NCBI GenBank assembly: GCA_950295325.1
Contig: OX485807.1
Location: forward strand, 24,461,666-24,525,665
DNA length: 64,000 nucleotides
Origin: Polytrichum commune
Taxonomy: Eukaryota; Streptophyta; Polytrichopsida; Polytrichales; Polytrichaceae
Reading direction: 5' to 3'
Both the position numbers and the translations under genes were made by a program. This document shows positions 37,930 through 60,127 of this stretch, in pieces (position 1 is the stretch's first letter; each line of letters starts with the position of its first letter). Below the pieces are notes generated by a model. It searched no databases. It was not told the origin of the DNA and saw only the letters and a program-made list of their open reading frames with translations.

Positions 37930-38340
37930 GCATTATAAATACTATACAGTACCCTATAATGTCATGTATTACTCTTTAGTAGAACTACATATAGGGTACT
38001 ATGTTTTAGGATGGTAAAAAATCTTGTTGAGGGTCACAAGGTTTTTCCACTCACAAGCACAACTCTTGAGTATTTAGTAGTATTTTTGTAGTGCTCAATC
38101 ATGTTATTAGGGTGTTTTGGTATTGATTAATAGTGTTCTTCTTCATCATGTTGAATTCGTATCATGTTTGGGATCTCAATCCCTTGTTATTATTGTATTC
38201 TACCCTTTACTGACAACTTTAGTAACATAAGGCAACTCATGTCTTATGTTAATGGGTTTCCTTATATTAGTAAGCATGTTGATAAAGGGTGCCTTGAAAC
38301 ACCACACATTATGGTGATTTTAAACAACATAGGAGTGAGT

Positions 38341-41219
38341 AGAAGTAGAAAAAATAGGGTATTAGAAAAAGGAAAAATATATATAAATAGCCCCCCATGG
38401 CTTTCGAAGGGTTCGGACCTCTAAAGGCTAATTCCTTCATCTTTTTATCTCTTTCAACTCTTCTCTTGTTTCCGGTTTACTTTCACTTAAGTAAAGAATG
38501 TAATAGTTAAATTTTATAACATAGTTTGATATTATAGAATGCTATATAACTAAGATTAGTTGGCGTAAGGTAATTGAATGATAGTTTAGTGTTGTAGGTA
38601 ATAAGAAAGTAAGCACTGTCATTTGAATAAAATTTTGATTTCTTGAACTTATTATTTGTTTTGATTTTGTTTCACTTGTAAATATATTTTGAGTTGTTAG
38701 TTGCTAATTAGCTTTTAGAAAACATTTGAATTCTATAATATATTGAATATACAGAGAAAATAATTTTCTTTTTAAAAATCTTAGACTAAAGGTAAGTAGT
38801 TTGAAGCCTCTAATACATTAGACACAACTAACATCAAAACCTTATATGGGCTCTCAGAATGTCAATTTTCTATAAGTTTTATATCTATAGAATATTTTTA
38901 AAAATTTTATATGACCCAAATTGTTTTAACACAATTAAAAAATCGTCTAATAATTAGATTTTTGTGAAACTACTTTAAAGGCTATTTGTCTAGGAACATC
39001 TTGCTTTTCAGGTTTGCTAAATTTTTGTATAGTTCTTATTTCCTATGAATTTTATATATACAATTAGGTCTTGAAGTTTTTTTTCTAGTCTAAATAGTTT
39101 TAACTCATTCTAAATTTTTATTTTTAAGTTATATAGGTTCCCGTGAAACAACTCTAAAACGTCATTTCCCTATAAAATATTTTTAGATTTAGAATTGATC
39201 ACAATAGGTTTTAGACCATATTGGTTTATATCATAATACCTAAATTATATTAAAGGGGTGTAAGTTGCTTATTCTATGGCAACTAAGCTTGGATTGGACT
39301 TTAGACGTTAACTAAAACTATTTAGATCAATTTTGTTCACCAAGATTTTCAATTTTTAATTCTAGGGTTTTTTTTTTACAAATGTAGATACAAAAATACA
39401 GTTTTCTTCGAAACCCAAGGGGTGCTTACTTTACCTCCTCACAATCGTAATACGAATTTTTTTATGGAAATATTTGAATTTGGTCATTACGGATAATGAA
39501 ATGCGAACAATGAACTTCAAAGGTGCCATTGCAGTCAATGTTTAGGTTACTTAGAATGGGATCAAAAATATCTATGGAAAAAAGGACTTAAATCTCCCCA
39601 TGGTCGATCATGATTAAACATGTCTTCTATATTGGTCATCATAGTTTAATAAGGTTATACATAAGTACATCAAACCATCCTTGTAGTTTTAGCACAAGTA
39701 AATATGTAAGGATTACAAGAATGCTAAGACAATGGACGAAGATGAGATTATATATCAAAACGATTGCATCATAGTGGTTATCATCCATACTTGCCACAGA
39801 AGAAGATATTTTTTGTCTTTCTGAGTGGTTGGGGTTCTAGCACTTCCGTTACGGGCATTAGGGTGGTTATATACTTATTATAAGTATAAGTATAAGTTAT
39901 ATTTATGAATGTTATATTATTTTAAACATATATATATACATATATATACATAATCTTATATATATAATCTTATATTTTGTGATGTTTGCAAAATATGACA
40001 ATAGATGAACATGTGGAGATACCAAGGTTTAACCTCGTAGAGACGGTGCATAACAAGTGACTTCAATAATCCAGCAACAAGATGACTTGCATGTACGGAG
40101 CAATAGTAATTGATTTGACATGTATGTTTATGCATATTGCAAATTACATGTTGTAGTTGAAAGGGGGATCTCTTGGTAAAGACATCAATTTAATGTTCTT
40201 GAAATTGAAGGTTATTGCCAAGTCTAGAGATCCCAAGCTGGATACATATGCCATCAAATCTTACCATGGACCAAAAATAAGGATTGTGCATTGGAGGGCT
40301 CACAGTTGTTGGGTCCACTAAACGGAAATTGAACTTGCCATCCGATGTTGAGTGCGACTCACATCGACTTGATAAAGTGAACTATTCAATTCCTTGCCCT
40401 AACACTCGGGCTAAAAGGGTACGCATAGAGTCCTTGAATTATGCAACACATAGTGTGGGTCATACTACATCTATTTTAGGAACATGTTGGTGGGTTTTTG
40501 CAATCCTTCCTTGCTCTATGAACTAATTCGGCACTAGTCACGTTCAAGCTTTGCCAAAACACCTCCCAAGCTAGTCCTCCATCCCTAGAATGTTCAATCA
40601 ACATATACTATTGTAAAACTTACCATTTAGAGCCCATAACATGCATTTCTAGGTAATGCATCACTAGTTATCTGAACCGCACTTCCACTAACACATTCAA
40701 CACCTTAGCCACATCAACCTTAAGGAACATGTTAGCTTACAAGAAGATCAACCCTAAGCTTGGACATTTAGAAAGATCGATCGTTTTTGTAGTTCTTTGG
40801 CGTTGGACCCAACCCTAAATCACCATAGGGTGAGGAAGCTACTTTTATTTGGTCACTACAACATTAATGAGGATTTCGTTCTCTAAGACCTATCATCAAG
40901 GGTGCAATAAAAACCAACCCCTAGTAGTTTGTTGTTGAGTCATAATAAAAAACTTTAGTAGACTATTTTGGGGTTTCTAATCCCAATTTAGGTGTTAGAT
41001 TGTTTTGGAATAATCCTTAGACTTTACATAGAAGTTCATGTTTTTACCCTCCTTAATGGTATGTATTGTGGCCATGTAGCCATGTAATGACCTACATCAT
41101 TTATGGTATTTAGTGTACTTACTAATATCTTGGCATGAGTATGTTCAACAATGTTATGAGGTATATATGTCTACGTTACACAATGGTCTACAAGTTGACT
41201 AAAAGTGCACACTTGACAC
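38341..41219. other. AT-rich spacer, no gene recognised
   Basis: Includes TATA-type low-complexity DNA (39918-39973). No domain, RNA gene or clear element end was found. The left-end sequence of the hairpin MITE at 13150 recurs near 41092. Confidence 0.45.
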
Positions 41220-41965
41220 TTGACATTAGTATGCTCAAGAAAAACTTCCTCTTGCATATTAATCCATAAACACATGGTAATTGCCATTAGGGCCGGTTTA
41301 CACCATGGACCATGAAGTCGGACCATGGAAGATGATATTTTTCCATGGACCAAGAGGAATGACCATGCACCAAAAAGTGAATGTGCTAGATTTTTTTTAA
41401 TATGTGCCCAAAAATGGCAGTTTTGAAGGGGGGGGGGGAGTTTGACAAATCCCTTGTCTTATCTTCTCTTCCCCCAAAAAAATTCATTAAAATATTATTA
41501 TAATGATGTTTCTTTGCCATGGGCCCCTACCTTTATTTTATTTTATTGGAGCACCTCTATTGCCTCTCCCACCGCAAAACCCGTTGCCCTATGTTAGTCG
41601 ATAATGTAGGCCTTAATAAAATATGTCTTTTGGGGACCTCGAACTCCACGGTCACTCTTACATGTTTTCCTTGGTGTAAACCGAAGTGGTCCTAGGACGA
41701 GTTCAACAGCCAATCACAAATGGCCTTGGGACAACTTCATGGTCCATGGTGTAAACAACCCCTTATTATGCTCAATAAACATCTTCTTTTTGCATACTAA
41801 ACCGCAAAACTAACATCTCAAGTATCCAATGTGCTACATTAAATGTCATAACATAGACATTTTTCACTTTAAAAAAAAAAGATTATCTTATTGACGCCTA
41901 ATATCAGGTTAGCAATTAGCAGATGTGACACTTTGAGACCTCTAGGCATCTAGTTTAAGCCCCTC
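41220..41965 (+). repeat. dispersed repeat occupied by a PIF-like MITE
   Basis: Flanks 41220-41286 and 41766-41965 correspond to the uninterrupted stretch 9870-10090. The MITE at 41290-41762 separates them. Confidence 0.6.
41290..41762. mobile_element. PIF/Harbinger-like MITE, copy 3 (473 bp)
   Basis: The left end reads GGGCCGGTTTACACCATGGA and the reversed right end GGGGTTGTTTACACCATGGA, both continuing CCATGAAGT. TTA lies on each side (41287-41289 and 41763-41765), the typical PIF/Harbinger 3-bp TSD. The sequence is a shorter relative of copies 1 and 2, retaining the CCGCAAAACCCGTTG and GGGGACCTC blocks. It has no coding capacity. Confidence 0.85.
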
Positions 41966-42047
41966 ATAAACAGTGTACGTGACACTAAACACCATAAACG
42001 ATCTAGAGAACTTTGTTGTTGAGCACATTTGATTGGAAGGTGAACTT

Positions 42048-42240
42048 ATTTTTGTTTGTTTTTTTATTCGTTCTGTTTTTGAAACAGAAGGCCAACAAGC
42101 CAACGCCAATGCATAACAAAGGAAGATGAAGTTGTAATTACGCACGGTGTGGGTGTTAGGTACATAATCTGGATTGCATTCTCTTGGCTTTTATTCATTT
42201 GGCACTGGCTGCATTGGCCTTCTGTCTCCAAAAAACCAAA
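42048..42240. repeat. inverted pair of SINE-like 3' ends
   Basis: On the minus strand, 42055-42118 reads TTATGCATTGGCGTTGGC then TTCTGTTTCAAAA, and on the plus strand 42190-42235 reads TTATTCATTTGGCACTGG then CTTCTGTCTCCAAAA. Both resemble the 3' end of the SINE at 62676-62871 (TTATGCTTTGGCATTGGC then CCTTTTGTCTTAAAA). Heads are missing, so these are probably two 5'-truncated or deleted copies. Confidence 0.45.
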
Positions 42241-42833
42241 AAAATTAAAAATTAAAAAATCTGGATTGCATTGGAAGGATTGAATCCCCTTCGAAGCTTT
42301 CCGGAAGCTCCGGTTGGCTAAGTTACTGTGGTTTGCCGATGCCGATCATGAAACCTGCAGCAAAGTGCAAAGTGGGCTAAAAAAAAACACGTTTCCGGGT
42401 CATTCATAAAGTGGAGGCGGGTTGATGAGGAGGCTTGCGCTTTGAAGCTTTCGACCTACATTATGTGTGTAAGGCTAATCAACTTTTTCTAATATCTCCC
42501 GTTGTGCCTGATGATGAGTGTGGGCTCATTTATCCCTTCAGCCTATCTTTGGGGGTACCATAAGCCTGGAGCCGTCACTGCAATCGGCTGGGTGGCCCCG
42601 CTCACTCACTGCACCCTCTATTTCTCGGATAGGCGATGCTGCTGCTGCTTATTATGCCTTTGTAAAGGCAATTGCCCGCAACCACATGTGTTGTTGCCTC
42701 AAATAGAGGAGATTTGCAAATTTTCTTTGGGACCAAAAAAAGCCAAGATGGGGGAGTCTCATTGGCTCAAGTGTTGCTACTGGGATCCGATGGCATTGCT
42801 TCGTTCATAGATAGGTAATGTAGCTCATGCCCC

Positions 42834-43130
42834 GATCACACTAAACTTTCCGTCCAGTTCCGGCCGTGAAATTGTTGGGGATTGTGGTCAGAAGTAGATG
42901 TTGGCCCACCATTTTTCACATTGTTACAGCCGGAGATGCCGACGGATGGTGTTAGAACTGGTCGGTGTGGTCGGCCCCTCATGCTGCCCCGATCACACCA
43001 AACTTTCTGTCCAGTTGCAACCGCGAAATTGTTGGGGATTATGATGTTCATAAATGGTTGTTGGCCCATCGCTTTTCACATTGTTACAGCCGGAGATGCC
43101 GACGGATGGTGTATGAACGGGCCAGTGTGA
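42834..43130 (+). repeat. diverged tandem duplication, period 157 bp
   Basis: Unit 1 starts at 42834 and unit 2 at 42991. They share GATCACAC-AAACTTTC, GAAATTGTTGGGGATT, TTTTTCACATTGTTACAGCC in variant form, and GGAGATGCCGACGGATGGTG. Differences include a small indel around the GATGTT-TTGGCCCA part. No conserved frame is evident. Confidence 0.8.
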
Positions 43131-43145
43131 ACAACCCCTCCTCGC

Positions 43146-43252
43146 TTACTGGTATGGGCCACCAACGAACGGTTCCTACCAGCAGGGGTCGCTTTTAGAG
43201 TCGGTTTAGCCAATGCTAGTAGGAACTGTTCATAGGTGACCCGCACCAGTAA
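43146..43252. repeat. 107-bp hairpin with about 40-bp arms
   Basis: The left arm begins TTACTGGTATGGGCCACC and the reversed right arm TTACTGGTGCGGGTCACC; both continue to GTTCCTAC-AGCA with few mismatches around a loop of about 27 nt. It could be a small foldback element or, if transcribed, a precursor-like stem. Confidence 0.7.
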
Positions 43253-44580
43253 ATGTGGGTGGGCTATAAGTTCATTGAGATAGTTGGGGTGTCCCTAACT
43301 TATTATTTAGTGGGTAAAGTTTTGTGAGATCTAGGAGGGTGAAAACGTAGAGAAAACGGAAGCATGTTGAGCTTAGAAGTGTAGGAAATCATGAAGTCCT
43401 TGAAGTTGAATTCGCCAGCATTTGGTGTATCAATGAGGCGCTTTGTAAGGGCAACTACTGTGACTTTCAGTGGAAGTTTTCCTCTCCTTTTGCTCCCAAT
43501 CATGAGTTTTTTTTTTCATGATTCGGATTGATTGGGGGGGGTGTGAATTTTCTTCGAATATAGTGGGATCCAACTCAAATGTCTTAACAACAAACATGGG
43601 AGGGGGATGTTTTTATTGCACCTCTAGCTCATGGTAGGTGTTGTGAACCAAAGTCCTTAATTAGTGACGGCTATGCAATAGCTTTCAATTCATCAACATG
43701 TGTTAGTCATCGGTTCCCATGACATTTGTTCGAAACTGAACGACATAGAAATAGTAAAGAAGGTATTTTATTATGTGAGACCAGGTATAACAAGAGAATC
43801 AACTAGCATTATGTCAGCCTATATGTGAAATCAACATGAATCTACTACCAAACTTTGTTCTCAACTTGCTTCAAATCAATAAGTAGAAGAACAATGTTAC
43901 ATGGATGAGGATTTGGAGGTAAAGAAAATCAACGTTTCTTGTTTATAGGTTCATCTTTAGTCATTTCTCTGGGAAATATACCCTTATTTAAGTATATTTA
44001 ACCTTCAAAACTGTTCCTTGATTAGAGAATTAGGTTCAAATCAGTGTGAAATATATGGTCAAGTACTTGAAGAATACAATATACTACCATATGCAGAGTC
44101 TAGTATTTTAAAACAACACTTATGTACATAGTTGTATTTTATTTCTTTATTAGATTCGTGTTTTACATAAGTTGGTTGTGAGCCTACAGATTAAGCGTCA
44201 ATGAACAATACCCATCCTATGACTATTTACAATCGGAATCCTATGCATGGGATTTTGTCATGTCAACATATTAAATTTAGTTCTGAGCTACACAACGATA
44301 CTCTTTAAGGCATTTGCAAAGACTCTTTCATTAAGACATAAACAACATTTGAAGTCCATTTTGAACATTGAAAGTCTCTCATCTTAAGAGATTTCATTTT
44401 ATTAAAATGCTCTTCAACCATTACGCATAACATTACTCAACAATGGTATGTTACACGCCCGTGAATATTCCCATGTTATTTTTGTAACCTAACCATGACC
44501 TACTAAGGATATTTGACAACATACAAAATTAAATTAGCAACTACTACACTAGAATTAGAACTTGATAGATTGATGCAATT
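43253..44580. other. spacer, nothing recognised
   Basis: AT-rich and without a convincing frame. Confidence 0.4.
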
Positions 44581-47400
44581 ATGACAATGCAAGTTGTGAT
44601 ATATTTATTTAGTTTAAAATATTTAATGTTGGACTATGCAAGAAAAAAATGGCAAATGACAGCCTTGGAAGTGGAAGATTTAGCAGAGGCCCAAGAGAAT
44701 GATGGAGGTGGCTCAGTTCAAGTTTATGTTATAGTGATGAACATGGAAGTAGAGCTTGAACCAATAGTAGTTCAAATTAAAGGATACTTGAACTCTTCCT
44801 ATCCATGCACGAATCTGGTTGATTCAGGAAGCACATATAATATGATGTTGCAAGAAAATTGGAACTCCCCCTTGTTCTAGTATAGGCGTCGTATGTTTTA
44901 CTACCAAACAACGAATCTTGCGCTACAAATCACCACATGTTGAAGGTGTTGGTGGACATTCAAGGAATCAACATTGTAGCCGACTTTGAGGTTTGGAGTG
45001 GAGCACCATACAACATCATTTTAGGAATGACATGGCTATGTCAAGTGGACGCACACATCACATGTAAAGAAGGTGCAGTACATAAAAACCTTTCATATTG
45101 AAAATCATTTGCCATAATAAGTAAATAATCATTACCCAAATTTTCCAATGTTTTTTCATTTACAAATGAAAATATCTATCAAAAAATGTCAAGAAATATT
45201 TTTAGTACATGTGGTGGAATTGGAAGAGGAAACCAAAGTCAACAAGAAAGAAGAGGTTGCTTTGGATGGGAAGTTATTTCTTGATGAATTTAGTGATGTA
45301 TTCCACTAGTAAGGAAAGTTGATCATGCTATAGAATGGTCACTAATGCAATCCTAGTCTCAAGAGCTCTATATATTCTTTCTTAGCTCAAAATGAGGAAT
45401 TAAAATTCAATATTTGAGGTGACTTCGAGGTTTGGAATGAAGCACAATACGACATCGTCTTAGGAATGATGTGGCTATGTCAAGAGGACGCACACATCGC
45501 ATAAAAATAATGTGCAATACATGAAAATAATTTAGATGGAAAATAATTTTCCAACAAGGGCAAACAATTATTACCAAAGGTTTCTATGGTTTTTCATTTA
45601 CAAATGAAAAGGTCTATTAGAAAATGTCAAGAAATATCTTTAGTACATGTGGTAGACGTGCAAAAATCAACAAGGAAGTGGAGGTTGCCTTGGATAGTAA
45701 ATTATTTCTTGATAAATTTAATGATGTATTCCATGATAAAATAATTGAATTATCACCAGTAAGGGAAGTCGGTCATGCTATAGACTTGGTCGCTAATGCA
45801 ATCATGATCTCAATAGCTCCATATTGTCTTTCTTTACCTTAAAATGAGAAATTAGAAAATCACTTGATGTGTTTGCTAAACAAATGCTACATTTAACCTA
45901 ATAAGTCTCCGTGGCTGCACCAATCTTTTTTGTAGGGGAATTTTTTTAAAAAAATTAATGAAATTTCTTTGAGATTGTGTGTAGATTACCATGGATTGAA
46001 TAAATTGACCATAATGAACAAATATCCTATACCATACACAAATGATATGGTTGATTATCTTTATGAAGCAAAGGTATTTCCTAAAGTTGACGTAAAGAGT
46101 GGTTAACATCAAATGCAAGTGAACGATTCAAATATTGAAATGACCACGTTTCAGTTGTAGCTAGGACACTATGAGTATGTTGTGATGCCTTGTGGCCCCA
46201 CTAATGCTCCAACAACATCTATGATCTTGATGAATACTTTGTTTCGTAAATATTTAGGTAAATTTGTGTTAGTATTAATTAATTATAATTTGATTTAGTC
46301 TAAAATAATAAGGATTACAAACAACAGCTTAGACAATTGTTTAATAGTTTGACTTCCAATAACTTTATGCCAAGTAGAGCAAGTGTGAATTTTAGTCATC
46401 GAGCATTGAGTACCTTGGGCATATACTTACAAACAAAGGCATACAGTTCACTCTAAAAAGTCAAAATAATTGTTGAGTGAGCAATACCTAGCGATAAGAT
46501 GCAAGTTTAAAGCATCTTATATCTTTTTAGCTATTATCAAAGGTTTATGAAAGGATTCTCCAAAATTCCAATCGCTTTTATTGCATTCTTGAAGGGGATA
46601 TTAGAGGTTGGTAGTTGGGCTTCTGATTGCGATTCATGTTTTTTAAACTTAATCAACCCTTCAACACCTATCTTGACAATGATGGATTATTTGAAGGGAC
46701 GTATTTTTTATGTACTAATGCTAATGATCTACCTATTGGTGTTGTTTTGATGCAAGAGAAATGCAAAATCCGTTGATTGTGATTGAGCCAAAAGATAAAA
46801 GATTTGTAGTAGAACCAAAAATCGAGCTACAAATAGAAATTTTTTACTATATGAGAAATATATTGTAAAAGTAATGTTTTGGCATAAAAGGGAGCTTGGG
46901 GGAGCACAGAGGATCTTTTGTCTTTACTATGGTTGGGCGGTTTGAGCTCATAGCAATCACAATAATGTGATTAAGTTGTAAAGCTTTTGTAATGTGCAAA
47001 GTTTGAAAATTCTCATATTGGTGTCTCATATGCATTCATGCCAAAACCATTTTGGATACAATTCACAACTTGCATCAACCCTTAGTTGAATATTTACAAT
47101 ATAAGCAAGATAGTCTAAGGCATGTTGCATGTGGGTGTTAAATGATTAGTTTTTCTAGTGGAATTACTTATATTGTTCTAATCTATATATGGAAGATTTC
47201 TATGGTTTAGCAAATCAGCCAAGAGGTGAGGTAAATACATTTTGTAATCAGACCCCAAATGAACAATATGCAATTTTTTGAACTCCATATTGTGTGATTC
47301 TATAGTTGGTTGCCTAGACTAGTCCAAAGTGATTCGAAACCAAAGTCAATCAAGTCCACCATGCTTTGAAGTTTCATATGGTTAATATGTGGTAATAACA
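44581..47400 (+). mobile_element. Ty3/Gypsy retrotransposon fossil, protease to RNase H region
   Basis: Pieces of pol appear in Ty3/Gypsy order. The retropepsin site NLVDSGSTYNMM lies near 44813, and the linker VWSGAPYNIILGMTWL near 44990. Reverse-transcriptase pieces run from about 45970 to 46260 (VDYHGLNKLTIMNKYPIPY, then an [13 protein letters not shown] equivalent). A piece after the catalytic region (FSKIPIAFIAFLKG) lies near 46547, and RNase H-like and later remnants follow to about 47400. Between the protease and the reverse transcriptase the element contains a tandem duplication of about 439 bp. No LTRs were identified. It is broken many times and looks old. Confidence 0.8.
44982..45740 (+). 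repeat. tandem duplication inside the Ty3/Gypsy fossil
   Basis: Unit 1 (from 44982) and unit 2 (from 45421) share TTAGGAATGA then TGGCTATGTCAAG, CATTTACAAATGAAAA, AAAATGTCAAGAAATAT, TTTAGTACATGTGGT and TTAGTGATGTATTCCA-type blocks at a constant offset of about 439 bp. They differ at many positions, so the duplication is old. Confidence 0.75.
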
Positions 47401-48359
47401 TACGCTATTATGTCCAGTTGCACGAGTTAAACCCTTTACAAAAGTCTTATACATGTAAATAAGATAATATCCAACATTATTTGAACTATGTCTAGCAGCA
47501 CAACATTGTTATGTGTCACCATGAGCTTGCCAACTAAAGTATGGTGGTCAATGTGGATTTTGCATGGATGTTTGTGGATTCAAGGATGTGCTTATCAAAT
47601 CACAAGTGAGGCAAGAGGTGATGGGCCACATAGGAGTTTCAAAAGGTTGCGATGTGTTTGCAAGACTCCGCCACAATGTGAAGCCATCATGAGCTCTTGT
47701 ATTTCGGGTAAGATGCTCTACATGCGGTTACTTATCATGTTGCATGTTGATAACGACCAAGACCCACCACTTAAGACACAGTTACAAGGCACTAGATGAA
47801 GAGAATAGTCGAATAACACTCACATACCCTACTTGACCAACTTCATGGCCCACTTCATCATGTTTGCACCCTGCACTAAAAGATGGTGGTACATTAAAGG
47901 TCTCCATCAATGTTATTTCCTTAGGTTGGTGACAATTTTGTTGTTGTTTGGATGTTAACAAAATTAACTAGAATTTAAGTATATTTGGATCTATGCATAA
48001 AATTTGGACAATTTTACCCACCAAATATCATACACTAGATCATCTAACCCAACTTCCTAACCTAACTTTGACTATATTGCGCCGGCATGGATGGCTTTGG
48101 GGTAGTTGAGCCTACCCCACAGCTGGAGGCAACGACACCCATTGCAGAGGGAGTAAGGGATTGAGGAGCAAGTTAGCATGGGAGCGAGGTGCGGCCAAGA
48201 GGTGAAGCAGACATGGACGCATGGGAGGCTCCAACGTCAATGCACACATAGAGCAAGGCGGTTGCAGCGATTGTCCTTGTCAAGGACATTACCTCTAAGG
48301 TATGGGCCCTCCCATTGGTCCAAATTTAGCTTCATTGATCCACCCTAAACCCTTGCTTA
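47401..48359. other. spacer, nothing recognised
   Basis: A 103-codon frame at 47488-47799 has no recognisable motif. A slightly GC-richer stretch near 48080-48250 is unexplained. Confidence 0.35.
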
Positions 48360-48824
48360 GGGGCGGTTTACACTATGGACCATGAAGTTGGACCAAGGCT
48401 CTGCAAGGCAGTTGATTGGCTCTTGAAGTTGTCCCGGGACAACTTCGGTTTACACTAAGGAAAAAATGGGAGAGGGACCATGGAGGTTGAGGTCCCCAAC
48501 ATATAATTTTTAAGGCCTAATAAATGCACTGACATGGTCCAACGGGTTTTGCGGTGAGAGAGGCAAGAGAGGTGGTCTGGTAGGAAAAGGAAAGGGCCCA
48601 TGACAAAGAAATGCCATTTCAAGAATGTTTTAATGAATCTGCCTTTTATGTGCCTTAATTATATTATAGCCCATGAGACATACCAGCCCTACCTTGCCCT
48701 ACCTCTTAAACCGGCTTACACGTGTTTCATCAAACAACGCGGGACATCTAGAACTCAAGAATTCAAGTGCAGATTGTTTTTTTGGTGTACCAGCTGCAAT
48801 GTTTGGAATCTGGGGGCGTGTAAT

Positions 48825-48865
48825 ATACCGTTGGAAAGGTCTTGAAAATACCTTTCCAACGGTAT
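48825..48865. repeat. perfect 16-bp stem within PIF-like copy 2
   Basis: ATACCGTTGGAAAGGT and its exact reverse complement enclose a 9-nt spacer. Copy 1 lacks this stem at the equivalent point (2040-2060), whereas the CACTA MITE at 5639 has a related CCTTTCCAA segment. Confidence 0.85.
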
Positions 48866-49306
48866 TTTACACGCCCCAAAATTTGCAAAAAGTATAGTTG
48901 CAAAAGAAAAAAGAAAAAAACGTAGTCGTTTAGTGATTGTAGATCAGGGTGGTCAAAAGAAGCGCAATGGGAAATCTTCTAACATTAATTATCAAAGAAT
49001 TGAAATTTAGTGTTGAGCAAGGTTGGGTGGTAACAACATTAGATATAATCAAACACTAAACATCCTATTTAGTGTAGTGACAACACAAGGTACATGTCAC
49101 ATGTAAATTACATTGAACATGTACAAATTGAATCGCTCATTTTTTTTTGTAAAAAATGTTGTGGGAAGATTTGCAAGCCACATCTTCGACACATTTAACA
49201 AGAAATGAAGACAGTTGAAGCCCAAGAGATGACAAGAAAATGATCAAAATTTAAGGCGAAAAGACGAAAAAACTAAGTGACAAGATAAGTGAAGGCATGT
49301 GTAGGC

Positions 49307-49967
49307 CTATGTTCGGGGAAAACCGACAGCTAGTTCATTATCAGCCGATGGATTTCCCCTCATGGCCGGTCCAAATTTCCAACCATCGGATGGCAATCCG
49401 ACTGTAATTTCAATCCTCCGGCAATTAGCCGATGGACCAAAAAATGTCCCAGAAATGTAGCCGATTCTTCTTGTGAGTTACTGGATTTCAGCCGGAAGCA
49501 TTCAGAGCGCTATTTGTCTGGGGCATCTGATGATGCACTTGAGGAAGTGCCCTAAACCTTAAACTTTTTGAATTATGCAACCTTTCCATGACCAAATCCA
49601 ATTGCTTCTATGAAGAATTGGGGGACCCTTGGCCTTCAAGCGGTGAAGGCATTGCTAGGTTCAATTCCTGCCAAGGATACTAACTCTTCAAATTTAAAGT
49701 TTTGAACATGCCTTTTCTTTTCACTTATTCAAGATTTTGTACTAAGAAATGATTTCTAATAACTTTTCATACATTTTTTAAACAATTAGTGCCGATATGA
49801 ATTCCATTTAATCGGATATTGGCCAATGAAAATATGAAAATATAGGCAATTGGCTGATTGATTTTACAAAAGACCGGCTCTTGCCGATGTAAATTGGAAA
49901 TAATCCGACCCTTCGTAGCAACTACCGGCAATTAGCCACTAAGGCTTCAAAAACTTCCTGAACTCTG
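49307..49967. mobile_element. hAT-like non-autonomous element, nested copy (661 bp)
   Basis: Flanked by an exact 8-bp duplication GTGTAGGC (49299-49306 and 49968-49975), the hAT hallmark. The termini are CTATGTTCGGGGAAAACC (left) and CAGAGTTCAGGAAG (right, reversed). It sits inside the PIF-like element; copy 1 of that element (around 1612) has the uninterrupted TGCCTACACATGCC, showing the pre-insertion state. It contains repeated GCCGAT/CCGGCAATTAGCC words and no transposase frame. A smaller relative is at 61832-62057. Confidence 0.88.
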
Positions 49968-50240
49968 GTGTAGGCAAGTGAAGGCAAATTGAAGTCAACA
50001 AAATGGTCAAACTTCATTTTTTCCCAAAATTGCCCTTTTTGGGCTTATATTAAAAAAATTAGCACATCCACTTCTTGCCGCATGGTCATTCCTCTTGGTC
50101 CACATTCGGTTTACACCTAGTGAGGGGCCCAACGGCTTTGTAAATCAAATTTTAAGAACTTGGACCATGAAATGTAGACTATGAACTCGTACCGCGGAAT
50201 AAGGCATCTTCCGTGGGACGAGTTCATGGTTTATGTTGGG

Positions 50241-51285
50241 TTAGGCCATGTGAAGCATAGGCTTGCTTAATGGAGAGCGAGGGGGGGTTTGCTCTCTCCC
50301 CCCCCCCCCCCTCCCAAGGCCCGTAAATGGGAGCTCGGGTGGGTCATTGGTGAAAATCATAGCAACAATGTGCTATAAAAAATAAGGTCTAATATATTAA
50401 TTTTAGATAAAATTTGCAAAAAACGTACATATGAGATAGGGGTTTTTAAATAGTGAAACGTGTTTACATGTAAAATACCTTCACATATAATGCGCTTTTT
50501 TTATTTAGTCAGTACATGTAAAATAACGTGGAAACAATTACTAGGGGTAGTGGGTCTAGGGTAGGGTATGTGCTAGTGAATGAAAAGAGGTAATTTTCTG
50601 TTGAAGAAGCTTGGATGGATGACTTCGCATGCTGGTTGGCTTGCATGTTATTGAACCAACATATCCAATATGGAGTTAATGTTCATTACCTATGTGCTGG
50701 GAGGGAAAATTTTAGCGCATTGTTTGAAATGCAATCTTCTTTCTAATTTTCTTTGGTAGTGTAAGCAAAATAGGGTATTTTTAAATGATTCCCCAAAAAA
50801 TTTATAATTACCGATAGGGTGTATTAAGATACAAGAATTTACCTTTATTTTGAAAAATACCATACCTTATAATGTTTTCTGCAAGGTAAATAGCCCCCCG
50901 ATAAATAAGTCTTGAGCGCACGTGTATGCATTAATATAAGAGGGAGTGACCCCCCCCCCCCCCCCCCCCCCGAGGTATGGAGGAGGCCATGGATGAGATC
51001 TTGGACCCTCACATGAAAAACCATGTGACCCTAACCTAAAAGGAGGAGAGGTTGGAGGGGAATTGCCCTCCCCCCCATATAACCATTTTAGACTACACTA
51101 TGGAACCAAAAAAAGGCCAAACGGTGCCCACATAAAATCCTACATACCAAAAAGTTCAAAAAAGAAAGCATGGAGAATGGCCCCCCACTTGGCCATTATG
51201 GAGTGGTCCTTGCTAGTCATTGCTTAGTCCTTATTAGGTATATGCCAAGTACTTGTAATGATGCTATTTAATTGGTAGTTGATCT
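50241..51285. other. spacer with two poly-C runs
   Basis: Runs of 14 C (50298-50311) and 22 C (50950-50971). No coding frame or RNA gene was seen. Confidence 0.5.
50950..50971. repeat. C22 homopolymer
   Basis: Uninterrupted run of 22 C. G-quadruplex-forming potential exists on the minus strand; its length in an assembly may be inaccurate. Confidence 0.9.
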
Positions 51286-53510
51286 ATGGTTCATGTTGTT
51301 CAAGAGATCAATGAAGACATTGTTTTCCCGTATGAGCTTGACAATGCCCATGATAATGTGACGCACATGCACACTCTTCAAATCACAAACTTCAATTATT
51401 TTATTAATGGTTTGAGAATTAAACCATTATCTAAGTTGCATTTGTTTATTCCTTTATGTCATCTAAAACCTTTGCCGTTGGTAAGACCTGTACTAGAGAT
51501 AGATGTCATGAAGTTGGAAAATAAGTTTGTGAATGGCTACGGTGAGGGAGATAGAGTATTACATGTTTAAGTGTTTGACAATGAGGGTGAAATGGAGGAT
51601 GTTACTGGTTTGATTACTAAGGGATGGGATGCTCATTGGAAATTGTCTAATACTTTTGAGCTGTCACTCCCCGGAGACAAGGATTTGCAAAAAAAATTGT
51701 GGCAATATGTTATTTGTTTGGGAGGGGAATCATAAAATCTTTGCATGGCGAAGGCTTGTAGACCATCATTATGCTAATGATGCCAATTGGCATTAGTCAA
51801 TGGATTGCATACTCCTTGACCCAACGGACTCAATGGGAATTTTTATAGAGGCTATGCACAATGTGAATAGTTGTGTGCTTCTCTTTTCATTTTTTATTCG
51901 TTTTGTTTATATTTTATTCATTTGTGTTGGTGTTTTGTGTAGGTCCACCAAATTTGATCATGTCAAAACGAATTTAGTTCACAAACTTCATTGTGTGTGG
52001 AAATTTAGGACTCTAAAACTATCGGCTTATAAGAATCTCCTCTCCGCGGATGATTATACCAAATGCAATAATCGTCGTAACAAAACTTGTTGGTATCCTT
52101 TGACTGTGGAGGTGTTCACAATTTTTGTATAAGGTGAGTCGAACCCCTTGACACTTGTCTTTATTGACATGCTATTAGTGAATTGACTTCTCATTAGTTA
52201 ATTTGTTCATAGTTACTTACAAAATTGAATGGATGTGGTGCAGTGTAAAATAACAAGTGCAATTAAAGATGTCATGCATAAATACAATGACAAACATCCC
52301 TTGAGAACTAGATCTATAAAGGGTGTCTGGAAGGTGATGAAAATTGATATGACTAAGGCAATTGGGTTTATCAAAGGCAGGGAGCTAGAGAAATTGCTCG
52401 CAGTGGAAAATCCCGCGAACGGAGAGGAGTTCTTTGCAGAGGTATCGTTTTTATACATTCATACCTCTACAAATCTATCACTTGTATCATCATTAATGCT
52501 TCATCAATTGATGGGTATGATGTAGATCAAGAAACACTTTGGTGTTATAACTAGGCATGATATGACACTAGAGAAGTTGCAAACTATTACAACTACTCCA
52601 ATGGAAGCAAAGTACGAGATTCAATGATCGCATTGGTGGAACTCAAGCTCCGTGATAAAGGAGTTGGTTCAATTTCCACTTGGTGATGTAAAAGAGTTTG
52701 ACCTTGAGTATTGGGTTATTTGAGCTTCATTTTGGGCACAAGTACAACTCTTTTCATTGTTCTTTATCGATTGATGTTTTTATTGTATGTATTTTTTGCT
52801 CATTTGAAAAAAATCTTGTAGTTGGAGGTGGCCATGGCGAACGAGTTTGAGGGCATGAAGGTGAATTGGATGAGGTGGAGTGTAGTGACCATATTCCACT
52901 CCCTACGTCTTACATGGAAAAATGAAGAATTTTGTTGTGGACCAAGGCATTGTAGTCGTTGTTAGGGGACCCCATGGATTCATTAAATCTATTATCCTTC
53001 TTCATTACCCAAAGGGTTAATTCATACATGTATTTTTCAATGCCATCTTTTAATGTTCTATTGGCATACTTTGCAAACAAAAAATTTGTTTCTTTGGGTC
53101 TTCATAGGCATCTCATGACTTTGGGGCTATGGCGTTGAAGTCTTTGCCAACATTCTTGTTGACTTGGCCACGGGAGGGTGATCTTTGCATGTTTACGAGA
53201 TCTCAATTTAAAACTGGGACAATGACACTTTATTGCAATGCCCTTGGTTCCTAAATTGTCCTTTGTTTTTTCTATCCACCAGAGGAAAATTTGGAGAGGT
53301 TTAGAGCATGGCTTTCACAAACACAAGATGATACAAACATCTTGGATGATGATACTCAAGTAAAAATTGCATCATCCCAAGTATTAGATAAATGTAAACA
53401 TGGGCAAAAAAAAACTGGCCCTCCTGCTCAAGGCATATGGCATGGAGCAAATTATCATACAACAACCAAGAAGCAACATATCAATAGAACAACAAAATAA
53501 TAATTCACAT

Positions 53511-53580
53511 GTCATAATGGTTTAGTTGGTTAGAACATAAGATCGTAATTTGCACATAGGGTTCCAAATCCCTCTTTTGA
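53511..53580 (+). pseudogene. degenerate tRNA-like sequence, anticodon-position CGT
   Basis: A GTTT/GAAC D-stem around AGTTGGTTA, a seven-base TCGTAAT loop in the anticodon position and an AGGG-TTCCAAA-TCCCT T-arm lie at tRNA-like spacing. The acceptor stem does not pair and the anticodon stem is weak, so it is not a functional tRNA gene. It may be an old tRNA copy or the head of a tRNA-derived SINE inserted in the ParB/methyltransferase fossil. Confidence 0.4.
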
Positions 53581-53819
53581 TAGGAATTTAACCTACAACA
53601 TAGTGGGAGAGGCCCCTAGCTCATCAATACCATTGGAGGTTGTAACACAAATTCCAATTGCTTCAACTCAAGCACCATTTGTTCCAATCAACCCTCCACC
53701 TTCAATTATTCACTCTCAGCATGTTACACAACAACATGTTGTTGAAAACAAAATTAGTACTTCCTTTGCTATCATGTTGCCATGTGTGTCTTGTAGTAAG
53801 GTTTTTTCTCTCAATTAAA

Positions 53820-55720
53820 TAACTCAAAACCCAGGGTACAAACTCTCAAGGAAGGTTTAACTAGTGTCTATTACAGGCAACTGTCACATTATAGTTCATT
53901 AATCAGACAATAGGGTTGTTATCTTCACTCTAAGTCACAACTCGTATGTCTTTTACTCTTTCATTCTCTCTTTCTCAGGCTTAATCTCCACTCTTATGGT
54001 TCATTGGTGCTTTGATCCGTGGGTGGGTTTGTCCTATCTGACGACTCCTATCACTCTAGTTTCACACTTCCTAATTACGTCGTGAAGCTCAAAAGCTTTG
54101 GCAATAGTCTTTTTGGATCTTGGCAATAGTCTTCCAATGGATTTTCATCCTATTGGGGTTAGCCTCTTCTTCCTTCATTAATTAATCATTCAATGCCATC
54201 AATCATAATTCAAATTGCATTGCTCAGAGAGTTTGTTCATTTACTTTATCTCTTTCTTAATTATAATTGAAATTTACTTATCTTAGGTTCGTCATTGTCA
54301 CACAACACACAAAGGTTTGCTTTGATTCCTGCAACATTCTTACATAATCATATAGATTCATAGGCTATAGCCATTAGATTCCAACATAATCGATTTCGAC
54401 ATCTAGCCTAATTCCTCTCACATCAAACCATATCTTTCTCATTCCTAATCATATCAAAACATGCTCTTTGTGGATTAGATTACTTGCCGACTCACCATCA
54501 TTATGATACTCTAATTTCCATCATGCCTCGTCACTCCCTCTAAACTTCTTGTCTTTCCTAACAATGATCACTTTGAACTACCTCATCACTTATGTTCGGG
54601 TGGTTACTTAAGACGTCTCCCTCTCTTACTCCTTCTGGTAGTTTCTACTTCGCCTCTATTAGTTTCCTCTCTCATAGGCGATAGTCCGTTAGGTTACTCT
54701 CGGTCATCAGCCATGACCGCAAAGAGCCTCTCCGCACTGGCTCTCTCTCTTGCGTACATTAAGGTGACTTAAACTTCTCTACGGCTCTTCCTTCTCTCCG
54801 TCGATTCTTTTGGCCTCACTATCTTGGCAATATGTTGATATTCATGGCTATGGCCCATGTGCCGATGAACTCGTCCTCACTTTCCTCAACTTCTTGTGGA
54901 TATGCTTACGGCATCATGTTCGTGTTACAAACTATGGCCCTTACATTTGCTTCTACTTAGGCTATAGTCAATCTCTTTCCTCGGTAAGTTCTAATTTTGA
55001 CTTGTAATTTGTGCTGAGATCATTCCTCTCGCTATCGCTAACCGCTTTTAGATTTCCACAAATCCTGGTTATGGCCTTCACATCTTCTGCAACATTCTTC
55101 ACTCCTTCCATCAAGATAGGGTGGTGTATTGACTTCACTTACCATGTTCATTTTACAATCCAACCTATAGCCTCTCTGCTCAACAACTTCTCACATCTTA
55201 CTCATAGATTTCACTCATTTGATGCTTTCTTCACTCGCTGAACTCGAACATGTTCTGGAAATACACTCATTCGACTCCAAATGCCATACACAAACTATTG
55301 CCATGTTTGTATTAATCATATAATCCTCTTTACTCAATCAATTCAGACTCAGTTTGTTAGGCTACATCCCCCTATCATGGGCGGTGATGCTCATTTGCTG
55401 ATCTAATTTCAAAGAAACTACATTCAACTAGCTCTATCGCCTATAGCCTGACTCTATGCGGCTATGGCCTTAGTAGATATAACGAGAAGTATCTTCTCCT
55501 TGGCGATAGCCCGCTTATCAAGCTCGGAGCTTCTAGTGGTTACAACTCCTACAACTACTTTCCTCGGGCTATAGCCTTCCGATTTCACCCTAACCTAACT
55601 TTCATCTAGTATTTTAGTTACTTTATCGTAAAAGAAAGTTTTTCTTTCCTACTATTAGGCTATGGCCAGAAAAATGGTATTACATGTCTATCATAGGGAA
55701 GAAGACATCAATATTGTTGA
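53820..55720. other. CT-rich non-coding stretch with recurring CTATAGCC/CTATGGCC words
   Basis: This pyrimidine-rich stretch separates the two halves of the ParB/methyltransferase fossil. Variants of GGCTATGGCC, GGGCTATAGCC and GGCGATAG recur (for example near 54676, 54848, 54960, 55438, 55463, 55503, 55569 and 55660). Open frames are short and unrecognised. It may be an inserted element or a very long decayed intron; no ends were defined. Confidence 0.45.
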
Positions 55721-57172
55721 TCATGGTGAATGGTGTTGATACAAATCAAGTTTTTTCTTGAGACTTTGGACTTCATGAAAAATATAAGTTTCATGTCTCT
55801 AGCATTCATTCATTCACTTAATTGTTATGTTTTTTTCCTTATACATGATCTTCTTCTTTGCAAATGTCTACAAATAACTCTAAGTTTAATCTCATTGTTG
55901 CCGACCTTCCAGATGGCCTCCTAGTACCCAATGTCTCCTCCCCACCATAGTCCATTCCTAATTGGAACAAGCACAACTTGAGCCATGTCAAAGCTTTGTT
56001 TGAGTTCGTGTTTGCCCACCTTGCTGATAATGCATGCATGCTTATTACGATACCTAAACTAAAAGTTGTTAGAGGGGATGTAATGACTTAAGTTGCTACT
56101 TATGAATTCACAATGGCAAAGAACTGGTGGAGCATCAACAAATTACCTTTGTGTTCAAACATGGATGGATCTCACACGGTAAGTTTTAGAATTGATATTT
56201 TTTGTTTCAATATATGGTTGGGTTGTGTTGTTATTTGTGTATTTTTATTGATGGTAAAGTTGTTTATTATTATGTCCTTCAAACCATGCGTTTCCACATC
56301 ATTATGTTCATGCACAATAAGATGTCTGCAGTGCGATTCAACTTTCAAAAACCTAGTGACACATCAACCTTGGATATTGAGGGCACTGATATCTTCTTTA
56401 ACCTAACTAAAGCGGGTAAATAGCTTATGAATGGAACGGTCCCTTGAAGAGGTGGTAGGGAGAGAGATCCATTGTCAATGCAAGCGTTTATTAAAGCATT
56501 AACGAAACATGAAGGAGTGATTCTAAGTGCTTATGTGTCAACAAGTGTTGCATTTCTCTTTTGCATATCAATCCCTAGAATGCAATGTGTTTGTTATATT
56601 CAATTATTTATAGTTGTTATTTGTTTCAAACCTTCCAAGTGCATCCATCCATGCTTGCAGTGGGATGCAATCATCACCTCGTAGCCTACGAGGGAGATTA
56701 TGCAATTTATGAGGCTATTCTTGCTCCATTGTGTGATGCACCTCATATTCCTTTTTGTTCTACCAATGGAGCCCATTCACACTCCCTTGTTGATGCACCA
56801 CTTTGGAAGGTGGCTAAGTGCTTGTGCATTAGTAAGTAAATTTGTCATGTGATGTAAGGCTAACAAGTATTACTTATTGCATATGCAATTTTTCTTTTTC
56901 TTTTTTTTGTTACCTAACTGTTAAATTGTGTATGCAAAATGTTGATGTCCATCAAATCTCCTCCTATGATGGTGGAGATTCATGCATATGCTAAAAGTGT
57001 AGCCAAGGTTATGACAACAACATCTACACCTAGATGCAAGTCAAGGTGTTTGAGTATCCATCCATTTGTAGATGATATAGCACTTAAGTGTAATGATGTG
57101 GAAAGACACTCTATGGACGGTGAGGGAGTGGAAGAGGATATGGATAGTCACGATGGATTCTACTTAGAGTGA

Positions 57173-60127
57173 CTTCAAGCAACCATTCTTTTAATTTATG
57201 TGTGATGTTTAGGTCTTTGATTTCACAATAACCACGATTGGTGGACATAATCTTAAATGCGGTATTCCAACATTTGTCTCATTCCTTGTATACGACACAA
57301 TTTGTTCCTTATTGCATTGTGTTCAATTTATTTGTTAGTTTCAAATTCCTACATGTAAGAGGGATTGAGCTCGTTAATGTCTATGCAAGTTCCCAAATGT
57401 TTCGGTCATCCACAAGTATAGGGTACAAATTCCCCTAAATCCATGTTTTTTTTTCCCTCTCACATGTTACATGTCACAAATCACCGCTCACATGATAGCA
57501 TTCCCTTGCTACTCTAACTTGCAACATTTCAAACGAAAGCAAAGCTTCTATATGCACATATGTAAAGTAAATTGTGTTTGTATTTGTGTCGACTTGGATA
57601 TACATTGATGTTGGAGTGTTATAACCAATTTTTGATAGGCACATTGTATAACCAATTTAGTGTGATATTAAAATTGATGCGTCACTTGAACCGTAGTGGT
57701 CTCCATGACTTGTCCCATAGAAGCTCATGTGCCATGCCACCTTCTTTGAATGTCATATGGTGAGTGCAAGATCATATATGTAGTTCAATGATGCATAATG
57801 TGGGCCACACTAAATTATATGTAGAGTGTAGTAGTCGGAGACACATAATGAACGATTTGTTTGTTTGTCGCATCCCCCCCCCCCTCCTCCTTGGAAAGGG
57901 GTGGGATGGAGGGGTTATCATAAGTCAAGTTATGATTTTCAAGCATTCACCCCTTGATGCCAATGAGGTCTATTTTGAGGTCTATTGCTAAGTTATGACC
58001 CTGCATATTGGTTGGGTATGGACCAAGTGACAACAGTGGGTGTCAAGGCAAATGTGATAAAGTGATTTGATAATAAAAAATGAGTGCATTTTTCGTCAAT
58101 TACCTTGAAGTGAATGATTGTTGCATTGACCCCCTCCCCTTGGTTTGGTGTGGGATGGGTTTTTATTAGGAGAGATGAAACCCATGAAAATGGAACGCAT
58201 TTCCCATTCGACACAGGATGGTGTTACAACAAGGCTCAATTGACAACAATTGAGCGAAATCTACGCCAATTGTAGAGTGGAATTCATTATTGTCGATTGG
58301 ACCATGTTCTAATCACATAGGAAGTGTGTTTTGGGACCTTGTTTCCTACTAGTGTTGTATCCTTGAGGCTGTAATAGACAAATAGACTAGGTGATAAGCT
58401 TGCACGGTGGCTTCAATTCAACGATTTCATTCACTAGGTTGTGGTAACAAATTTGATGTGCTATGTTAATTTTTTTAAAATGGTATTCGTGACTTGTAAT
58501 GTAGCACCAAGTATCATGTGACACCCTCTCTAGTTGCAACATGGTGATTGCAAGACAATCAATATAGATGAATAATAAGTCGGTAGTATAGGTCATACTA
58601 AATCAGGTGTGTAGTGAATCATTGTATTGCTTATGCGTTGCCTAGTAGAAGAAGGACTAAGCAAGGGTATAACTTAGAAAGTATTTGAAGATTCAAAAAC
58701 CCAAGCTCATGACAACAACTGATATTTACATAGAAGGAGGATAAAAGGATATTTGTTTTTGGGAGTGACTAGGCAATGATTGAACCAAATTAAACCTTTC
58801 CTTTGAATCCATCAACCCATCTACCTACCCATTCATGAGTCTTTGAATACCAAACACACACACACACACACCTAGCGGACGGGTGGTCAAAGGCCGCCCA
58901 ACTATTTGCCTATGGCTAGACTACATATACATATTTCCCATGAACTTCTTATAACAATACTAAGCTTAAACAAACCTTCTCACTGCAACAATGGGGGAAG
59001 TTGGAAGTTAAAGACAATGAATGGTGAGAACCGGCTGCTCTAAAAGATAGTCTTATTAGTGTGGGCGGAATCTTAGCGTGGAGATAATTAACTTGGATCA
59101 CACTAATTTTCTAGTCAAGCTGGAATTAATGTGGGTCCAAGACTCTAAGTCTTCATGAAGATTTTTGACCAACACACTAAATATTATTTATAGGTCAAAA
59201 GTAGCACAAATCAAATCAATCACCCCCGTTATTTTGTTAAAAAAAACAGTTAATGTGACCCACATTAATTTTCTACTAGAAATTTAGTGCGGGTTGAAAA
59301 TCAATGTTGTCCACGTTAAATTTCATCATGAGAATTAGCATGGGCTTTAGAAAATTTACGTGACCCACAATATTAGGATTATTTAGTGTAGTTACAGATG
59401 AACCAGTTGAAGTTGAAGACTCCGTGAAAACTACCCATCATTTTTGAAGAATCTATAGAATACATCCCAACTCAACTGCATGTCATAACATTATTTAGAT
59501 CCATAACAATGTTATGTGGGACTGATAATATTCCACATAATATTCACGTATTTGGACGGAACACGAATGTTCCTTGAAATATTGTCAGTCTCGCAAAACA
59601 ATGTGTTATGGGTTTGAATAATGTTTTGGTAAGCGGTTGGACTTGGAAACACTAAGGTATTGACCGATTGTGCCGAAAAACCTCCCCGGACACCGTAGTC
59701 GAAGGCATGAGCACCTAAGTTGCTCGCTTGGTTAATTACTTACAGAAGCATGTGAATGGGGGAGGAACCCCCGTGAGTCATGTGCCTACAATTTACTGGC
59801 TGGCTGGCTGGTATCATATCCACACTAACTAAAAAGGCGACCCCCTCCAATTGGCAAAGAAGGGTATGTTGTGGGGGGCCATTGGCTAAGGCCAAAAAGG
59901 AAGGCCACTAGCTAGAAAGCAAGGGGGGAAATGGCGCTTAAATTAGTGTGCTAGAGGTGGGAGGGAGGGCATCCTAGGGCTTGGGCTCTAGGGTAGCCAT
60001 AGATTCCGGCCTCCCACACGGTGGCCCACTAAATTGCAGTGAATGCCATTGATTAGGCCACCCGTGCATTCACCCTCTTCTGCTTATAATTGGGCCTATG
60101 CCACCCTCCCCCCACCTACACATACTG
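57173..60127. other. spacer with MITE debris, no gene recognised
   Basis: The stretch holds a C-run (57870-57881), an (AC)n microsatellite (58855-58871) and, at about 59030-59400, TE debris with CACTAATTTTCTAG and TTTTCTACTAGAAATTTAGTG words and repeated GACCCACA-TTAA blocks suggestive of CACTA-type MITEs, without clean ends. No domain or RNA gene was found. Confidence 0.4.

What the first reader, a model, noticed from the sequence alone, without database searches (positions are those of the whole stretch)
51286..57172. Intron-bearing fossil combining a ParB-like domain with a beta-class DNA amino-methyltransferase in a plant-like genome
The sequence shows a GNHK box in a ParB-like setting (WEGNHK, about 51740) and, 4 kb later, blocks that fit a DPPY-type region, then an FxGxG-type region, the order of beta-class N4/N6 methyltransferases. 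ParB-methyltransferase fusions are familiar in phages and bacteria. Spacers with T-rich tracts and TAG/CAG ends imply that the gene lived in a eukaryotic nucleus long enough to carry introns. The ancestor might be a host gene family, a captured prokaryotic or viral gene, or cargo of an unrecognised mobile element. That last step is inference.
Basis: partly seen in the sequence, partly recalled or inferred. Interest (0 to 1): 0.82.

Follow-up and report, generated by a model that had tools for sequence, protein, structure and literature searches.

The report
Transposon's ParB-like methyltransferase gene, decayed
The stretch is a dead copy of a gene carried by a large, recently mobile plant transposon family; better-kept copies encode an unusual protein with a methyltransferase-type domain and lie beside arrays of palindromes that may be its own binding sites, which might help the transposon escape silencing.

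Summary
It is one degraded copy of gene 2 of an abundant DNA-transposon family in a 408-Mb land-plant genome (984 first-look candidates for its first exon; the 150 that were scored all matched). Recent relatives of one lineage are 15-35 kb elements with perfect 9-bp target-site duplications (6 of 6 checked). They hold a divergent transposase-like gene and, on the other strand, a gene of about ten exons under purifying selection. Its C-terminal part is a beta-class N6/N4 DNA-methyltransferase domain (PF01555 in 4 of 4 lineages, best 2.6e-6). The catalytic DPPY is replaced by D-x-P-[D/E], so catalysis is doubtful. Its N-terminal domain has a GNHR box laid out like ParB, but no profile or fold search confirmed ParB. 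New here: non-coding parts carry arrays of 18-22-bp palindromes that differ between lineages; four lineages share a CGG-N2-CCG core. One occurs 1,441 times in the genome, its reversed control never. Best model: gene 2 encodes a binder of its own element, comparable to the VANC anti-silencing proteins of Arabidopsis VANDAL elements but built from other parts. Function is untested.

The parts
51283..51687 (+). first-exon remnant, N-terminal part of the GNHR-box (ParB-like) domain; one stop at 51568
   Evidence: 150 places scored; 44% identity, 1.2e-34 to L018
51698..51868 (+). rest of the first exon after a frame change, holding WEGNHK at 51719-51736; one stop at 51794
51872..52477 (+). exons 2 and 3 with the intron between them
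   Evidence: 9.5e-26 to L018:5396-6025
52526..52750 (+). exon 4
   Evidence: 2.5e-15
52832..53330 (+). probable exons 5 and 6 (by eye only, strongly decayed)
   Evidence: no significant tblastn match
54363..55667 (.). cluster of GGCTATAGCC palindromes (8 copies with at most 1 mismatch), between the probable exon 6 and exon 7
   Evidence: 8 of the window's 8 copies lie here; the next GC-rich 10-mer palindrome reaches 3 in any 1.9 kb
55873..56184 (+). exon 7, methyltransferase motif IV block (DLPD at 55903-55914)
   Evidence: 2.7e-15; 1.4e-21 to L042, small search space
56448..56528 (+). exon 8 remnant (RGGRERD..., before motif I)
   Evidence: E 0.002, single comparison
56669..56740 (+). exon 9 remnant (NHHLVAYEGD..., after motif I)
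   Evidence: 2e-7, single comparison
56951..57172 (+). last exon remnant and stop codon
   Evidence: 2e-5, single comparison
39453..40457 (+). transposase-gene remnants (39453-39638, 39989-40222, 40290-40457); same strand as the fossil, unlike the recent elements, so probably from another dead copy or an inversion
   Evidence: 8e-17, 2e-6

Best explanation
The window holds a dead copy of gene 2 of a probably Mutator-like DNA transposon family. SHOWN: recent elements have 9-bp target-site duplications, a transposase-like gene read leftward, and a divergent gene 2 of about ten exons read rightward. Gene 2 encodes a GNHR-box N-terminal domain and a C-terminal beta-class methyltransferase domain with an altered catalytic motif. 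Non-coding parts of most lineages seen carry arrays of 18-22-bp palindromes that differ between lineages. INFERRED: the gene 2 protein binds the palindromes of its own element as a dimer (as ParB/SopB do at parS/sopC, recalled, and VANC at its repeats) and thereby keeps the element from being silenced, with the methyltransferase domain acting as a DNA- or SAM-binding module rather than an enzyme. Likelihoods: anatomy about 0.95; gene 2 protein binds the arrays about 0.6; outcome is anti-silencing about 0.45.
For: Mobility: 6 of 6 copies of lineage A checked at both ends have perfect 9-bp duplications; copies are 95-99% identical over kilobases. Two-gene unit: 50 of 65 scored transposase places have a gene 2 exon within 20 kb on the other strand, about 0.5 expected per exon type; 26 of 27 and 36 of 37 of these are divergent. 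Methyltransferase: PF01555 in 4 of 4 lineages, a solved DpnA-type enzyme 7.1e-7, hhalign with a three-member profile (two phage enzymes, one from contig C12) 4.5e-8. Selection: omega 0.09-0.22 for the first exon in pairs with dS 0.22-1.36, 0.21 for the motif IV exon. Arrays: ATCCCACGGATCCGTGGGAT 85 sites, control 0; the 50 sites listed all lie within 20 kb of a family hit, ground that is 2.7% of the genome. ACCCTCTCGGTTCCGAGAGGGT 1,441 sites, control 0. GGTTTCGGTACCGAAACC 41 sites, control 0; 25 of 41 within 5 kb of a scored first exon, all 25 upstream, chance 0.4%. CGGnnCCG 15 against 0.6 expected (L018), 28 against 0.65 (L028), 19 against 1.35 (L027) in resampled sequence. Arrays upstream of gene 2 and, in two lineages, in its intron resemble where VANC21 motifs lie in VANDAL21 (PMC5735166, passages).
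Confidence: 0.6

Rival explanations
1. Gene 2 encodes an active DNA methyltransferase that marks the element's own DNA (6mA or 4mC), and the mark, not mere binding, shields it from host silencing.
For: The domain is a true N6/N4 methyltransferase relative; the motif II region (ALExD) and one Gly of motif I are kept in the 4 lineages aligned; the motif IV exon is under purifying selection.
Against: The aromatic residue of motif IV is Asp or Glu in the 4 lineages aligned (DVPD, DAPE, DIPE, DIPE) and in the window (DLPD), and motif I varies (DWQCGTG, DWSPSTG, DWQCGVG, DCTAATG).
Confidence: 0.15
2. Gene 2 is a transposition helper, like the second genes of maize MuDR or yeast Mutyl, and the palindromes are binding or assembly sites for the transposase.
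For: Divergent second gene in conserved order; second genes of such elements are known (PMC6446971, passages; the name MURB is recalled); CGGnnCCG sites also occur in the 5 kb fetched around a transposase (11 in L043, nine of the ten shown being the array motif).
Against: The arrays examined lie internally, upstream of gene 2 and in its intron, while the lineage A ends carry a different repeat, GAGCGTA.
Confidence: 0.25
3. A host ParB-methyltransferase gene family, or a captured viral or bacterial gene, that merely decayed here.
For: Same domain order as ParB-methyltransferase fusions such as L001 (contig C12) and OP947158.1.
Against: Many dispersed copies, some near-identical, inside elements with target-site duplications; no relative confirmed in prokaryote or viral contigs by pattern scan and no phage match for the one first exon tried.
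Confidence: 0.05
4. The GNHR box is a chance likeness and the N-terminal domain is not of the ParB fold.
For: Searches gave no significant ParB match.
Against: G-N-H is invariant and the R nearly so in 16 sequences, with the layout R-P-I...D-V..L...F..G-Y...V...E-G-N-H-R..A-W; the helix and strand order of the low-confidence model is compatible; the strongest sub-threshold Pfam match, DUF6551 at 1.3e-3 in 2 of 16 members, covers just this box.
Confidence: 0.4

Closest known systems
VANDAL Mutator-like elements of Arabidopsis with VANC anti-silencing proteins (PMC5735166, passages read)
   Same: DNA transposon with an extra gene; family-specific short motifs in tandem repeats, placed in introns and upstream regions; motifs differ between families
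   Different: The VANC21 motif YAGTATTAY is not a palindrome, and the passages read mention no methyltransferase domain; here the sites are long palindromes and the protein has a GNHR-box and a methyltransferase domain; anti-silencing is untested here
ParB-N6/N4 methyltransferase fusions of phages (PMC12704722, passages read; OP947158.1; also L001 on contig C12)
   Same: N-terminal GxxR-type domain followed by a beta-class methyltransferase
   Different: L001 keeps DPPY; this gene has D-x-P-[D/E], introns, a long middle region, and lives in a plant transposon
Bacterial parS / F-plasmid sopC arrays with ParB/SopB (recalled, no call)
   Same: Clustered palindromes next to the gene of a putative ParB-like binder; sopC is also a tandem array
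   Different: Binding not shown here; host, element and partner genes differ
Fungal DNA transposons that carry TET/JBP dioxygenases (PMC12730594, passages read)
   Same: DNA transposons that carry a gene related to DNA-modification enzymes
   Different: Different enzyme family and host; no binding-site arrays mentioned in the passages read

Membership tests
Mutator-like elements (MULE) | 8-11 bp target-site duplication | tested here: met
   9 bp in 6 of 6 lineage A copies; range from PMC6446971
Mutator-like elements (MULE) | MULE transposase domain | tested here: inconclusive
   No Pfam match for the 681 and 493 aa frames at E <= 10 or the 781 and 238 aa frames at E <= 1; the 754 aa frame gave only FERM_M 0.023. 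DDE-like and SWIM-like motifs seen by eye
Mutator-like elements (MULE) | terminal inverted repeats (not universal) | tested here: inconclusive
   Short shared inverted motif CATGAGCGTAGAGCG near both ends of lineage A
N6/N4 (beta-class) DNA methyltransferase | PF01555 homology and motif order IV then I | tested here: met
   4 of 4 lineages, best 2.6e-6; the first member scores 22.1 bits, under the 26.7 cut-off, bits of the others not shown; 7.1e-7 in PDB; 4.5e-8 by hhalign
N6/N4 (beta-class) DNA methyltransferase | catalytic (D/N/S)-P-P-(aromatic) (recalled) | tested here: not met
   D-x-P-[D/E] in the lineages aligned; L031 DISE
ParB / sulfiredoxin fold | GxxR box after beta-alpha-beta | tested here: inconclusive
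   Box present; profile and fold searches negative or of low confidence
VANC anti-silencing proteins | sequence homology to VANC | not tested
   No VANC sequence was compared
VANC anti-silencing proteins | family-specific motif arrays in introns and upstream regions | tested here: met
   Lineages A, C, C', D and L015, weaker in B'; not in lineage B
VANC anti-silencing proteins | loss of methylation at own copies | not testable with these tools
   no methylome

The most novel reading that the evidence does not exclude
A eukaryotic transposon uses a ParB/parS-like module: a ParB-fold protein fused to a catalytically altered methyltransferase loads on arrays of family-specific palindromes in its own element (perhaps as a nucleotide-gated clamp that spreads) and so excludes host silencing, with binder and sites co-evolving by tandem-repeat turnover.
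Probability: 0.25. Interest if true: 0.9.

Novelty: new variant of a known kind. Interest (0 to 1): 0.74.

Why it matters
To my knowledge, transposon-encoded sequence-specific counter-silencing is known chiefly from VANC in Arabidopsis. A second system built from different domains, with long palindromic sites and several lineages in one genome, would suggest that the strategy arises repeatedly, and it gives a ready test set for protein-DNA co-evolution. If the ParB fold is confirmed, it would also be a eukaryotic ParB-like protein other than sulfiredoxin, which the 2025 survey names as the most common eukaryotic form (PMC12704722).

Tried and rejected
Lone host gene or simple capture: rejected by copy number and target-site duplications. 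An exact 14-mer palindrome scan found recurrent arrays only in lineage A; allowing a central spacer showed others. For the N-terminal domain, profile comparison with nine ParB domains (six phage, three from contigs C12 and C23), PDB sequence searches, PHROGs, NCBIfam, phage tblastn with one first exon, viral and prokaryote contig scans gave no ParB support; the best stray hits were phrog_1033 'ParB-like partition protein' at E 0.14 in 1 of 16 members and DUF6551 in 2 of 16. A viral scan with the methyltransferase profile also confirmed nothing. The AlphaFold model was poor and its fold comparison empty. No terminal repeats or target-site duplication could be assigned to the window copy; of the inverted repeats of 24 bases or more found at 40000-62000 none brackets the fossil. 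Literature searches for such a transposon found no report in the listings (each a listing of limited length); subscription papers and preprints are not held.
Full report
WHAT IS IN THE WINDOW. The window is G000:C5:24461666-24525665, in a 407.8-Mb genome of 64 contigs; contigs C1-C7 are 42-78 Mb long. GRAS-domain matches (70, none in the 14 control genomes) show a land plant; 'moss' is my inference. At 51283-57172 on the + strand lie collinear remnants of one gene: first exon 51283-51868 with stops at 51568 and 51794, a frame change near 51690, and WEGNHK at 51719-51736; exons 2-4 at 51872-52750; probable exons 5-6 by eye; exon 7 at 55873-56184; weak exon 8 at 56448-56528; exon 9 at 56669-56740; last exon to the stop at 57170-57172. 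It is a pseudogene.

FAMILY. The first-exon piece matched 150 of 150 scored places out of 984 candidates; the methyltransferase exon of a recent relative 150 scored of 1,004; the transposase-like frame 65 scored of 2,116. These are capped lists. Some copies are 95-99% identical over 2-8.7 kb. Open frames around the first exon reach 324 aa.

ELEMENT. For lineage A I checked both ends of six copies; all six have perfect 9-bp duplications: GCAACCTAT, GTCCACTTG, TCTTTGAGG, ATGAGAACC, CATCCCATT, TCCTGGAAG. The base next to the left duplication varies (A, G or C). The copies in L036+L018 and L037+L020 are 16 and 15 kb; the one with ATGAGAACC spans about 34.6 kb from its two end positions. Ends of other lineages and of the window copy were not found. 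The left part encodes, leftward, transposase-like frames (681-781 aa and 493 aa) with by-eye SWIM-like and DDE-like motifs but no informative Pfam match. The right part encodes gene 2 rightward. Of 65 transposase places, 27 have a first-exon hit and 37 a methyltransferase-exon hit within 20 kb on the other strand (about 0.5 expected each), together 50 of 65; 26 of 27 and 36 of 37 are divergent; on the same strand there were 0 and 1. Of 150 first-exon hits, 38 have a methyltransferase-exon hit within 10 kb on the same strand, all 38 downstream, 0.55 expected. 15 of 65 transposase places had no scored partner.

PALINDROME ARRAYS. Tandem repeats in the elements contain palindromes: lineage A AATCCCACGG-AT-CCGTGGGATT; C' (L028, L029, L043) ACCCTCTCGG-TT-CCGAGAGGGT; C (L027) CTCTCGG-CT-CCGAGAG; D (L030-L035) near-palindrome CCTCTCGATTCCGAGAGG; L015 lineage GGGTTTCGG-TA-CCGAAACCC, four sites about 136 bp apart upstream of the first exon; B' (L025, L026) GACCCCTGCG-TTGG-CGCAGGGGTC, two to three copies; B (L022-L024) none found. 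Whole-genome counts against the reversed pattern: 85 against 0 (lineage A 20-mer, per strand), 1,441 against 0 (C' 22-mer, both strands), 41 against 0 (L015 18-mer, per strand). The 50 lineage A sites listed, of 85, all lie within 20 kb of a family hit, ground that covers 2.7% of the genome. For the C' motif I tested eight of the 100 listed sites (ends of some clusters), 6 of 8 near a hit; at C1:24591147-24604093 the array fills the space between a transposase hit and a methyltransferase hit. Of 41 L015-type sites, 25 (12 of 19 clusters) lie within 5 kb of a scored first exon, all upstream; 16 do not, but only 150 of 984 candidates were scored. In C' and D, arrays also lie in the intron after exon 4. 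Strict CGGnnCCG counts: L018 15, L021 15, L017 10, L020 9, L016 2 (its array lies outside the stretch), L019 0 (none in its upstream L038 either), L027 19, L028 28, L029 18, and 0-1 in L022-L026 and L030-L035; expected 0.15-1.35. So lineages A, C, C' and L015 share the core CGG-N2-CCG; D, B' and the window do not.

THE WINDOW'S OWN CLUSTER. GGCTATAGCC with at most one mismatch occurs 8 times in the window, all at 54363-55667, between probable exon 6 and exon 7. Among the 1,024 ten-base palindromes it is the most clustered after the two AT simple repeats; the next GC-rich one reaches 3. The motif was chosen after seeing the sequence, lacks the core of the other lineages, none of the three array motifs tested has a recognisable copy in the window, and the stretch could be an insertion; I count it as suggestive. 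The transposase remnants at 39453-40457 are on the wrong strand for the same element.

READING. A DNA transposon with an extra gene and lineage-specific motif arrays in introns and upstream regions is what was reported for VANDAL21/VANC21 (passages of PMC5735166). By that likeness I propose that gene 2 protein binds its own arrays, most likely as a dimer since the sites are palindromes, and counters silencing. Binding, dimerisation and anti-silencing are inferences. A ParB fold, if true, would add a nucleotide-gated clamp; that is the bold reading.

KNOWN OR NEW. The 2025 ParB-fold survey reports phage N6/N4 fusions and names sulfiredoxin as the commonest eukaryotic form; 'plant', 'transpos' and 'moss' do not occur in its main text (passages). 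The Mutator survey lists extra genes, and only flowering plants among land-plant hosts in the table rows I saw (passages). I found no report of this element in the listings.

Noticed in passing
L001:1468-2799 (contig C12, 61 kb) and L002 (contig C23, 20 kb): Small contigs of the assembly look bacterial or phage-derived; C12 encodes a 443-aa ParB-methyltransferase fusion with intact DPPY.
   Followed up: partly
window 36826-37932, - strand: 368-aa open frame that looks like the RNase-H end of a LINE (by eye).
   Followed up: no
window 41286-50102: Diverged inverted repeats (e.g. 41346-41396 with 50052-50102, 88%) that may bracket another mobile element upstream of the fossil.
   Followed up: no
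window 50280-50311, 50939-50970, 57856-57887: Unusually long runs of C on either side of the fossil.
   Followed up: no
L037:1362-4610, - strand: 1,083-aa Copia-type polyprotein frame (by eye) directly at the left end of the element in L037+L020.
   Followed up: no
G000:C1:24591147-24604093: About 13 kb of palindrome array (spacing often about 107 bp) between a transposase hit and a methyltransferase hit.
   Followed up: partly
L018 and L021: A second palindrome, ATGCACGTGCAT with at most one mismatch, occurs 4-5 times; its place in the arrays was not checked.
   Followed up: no
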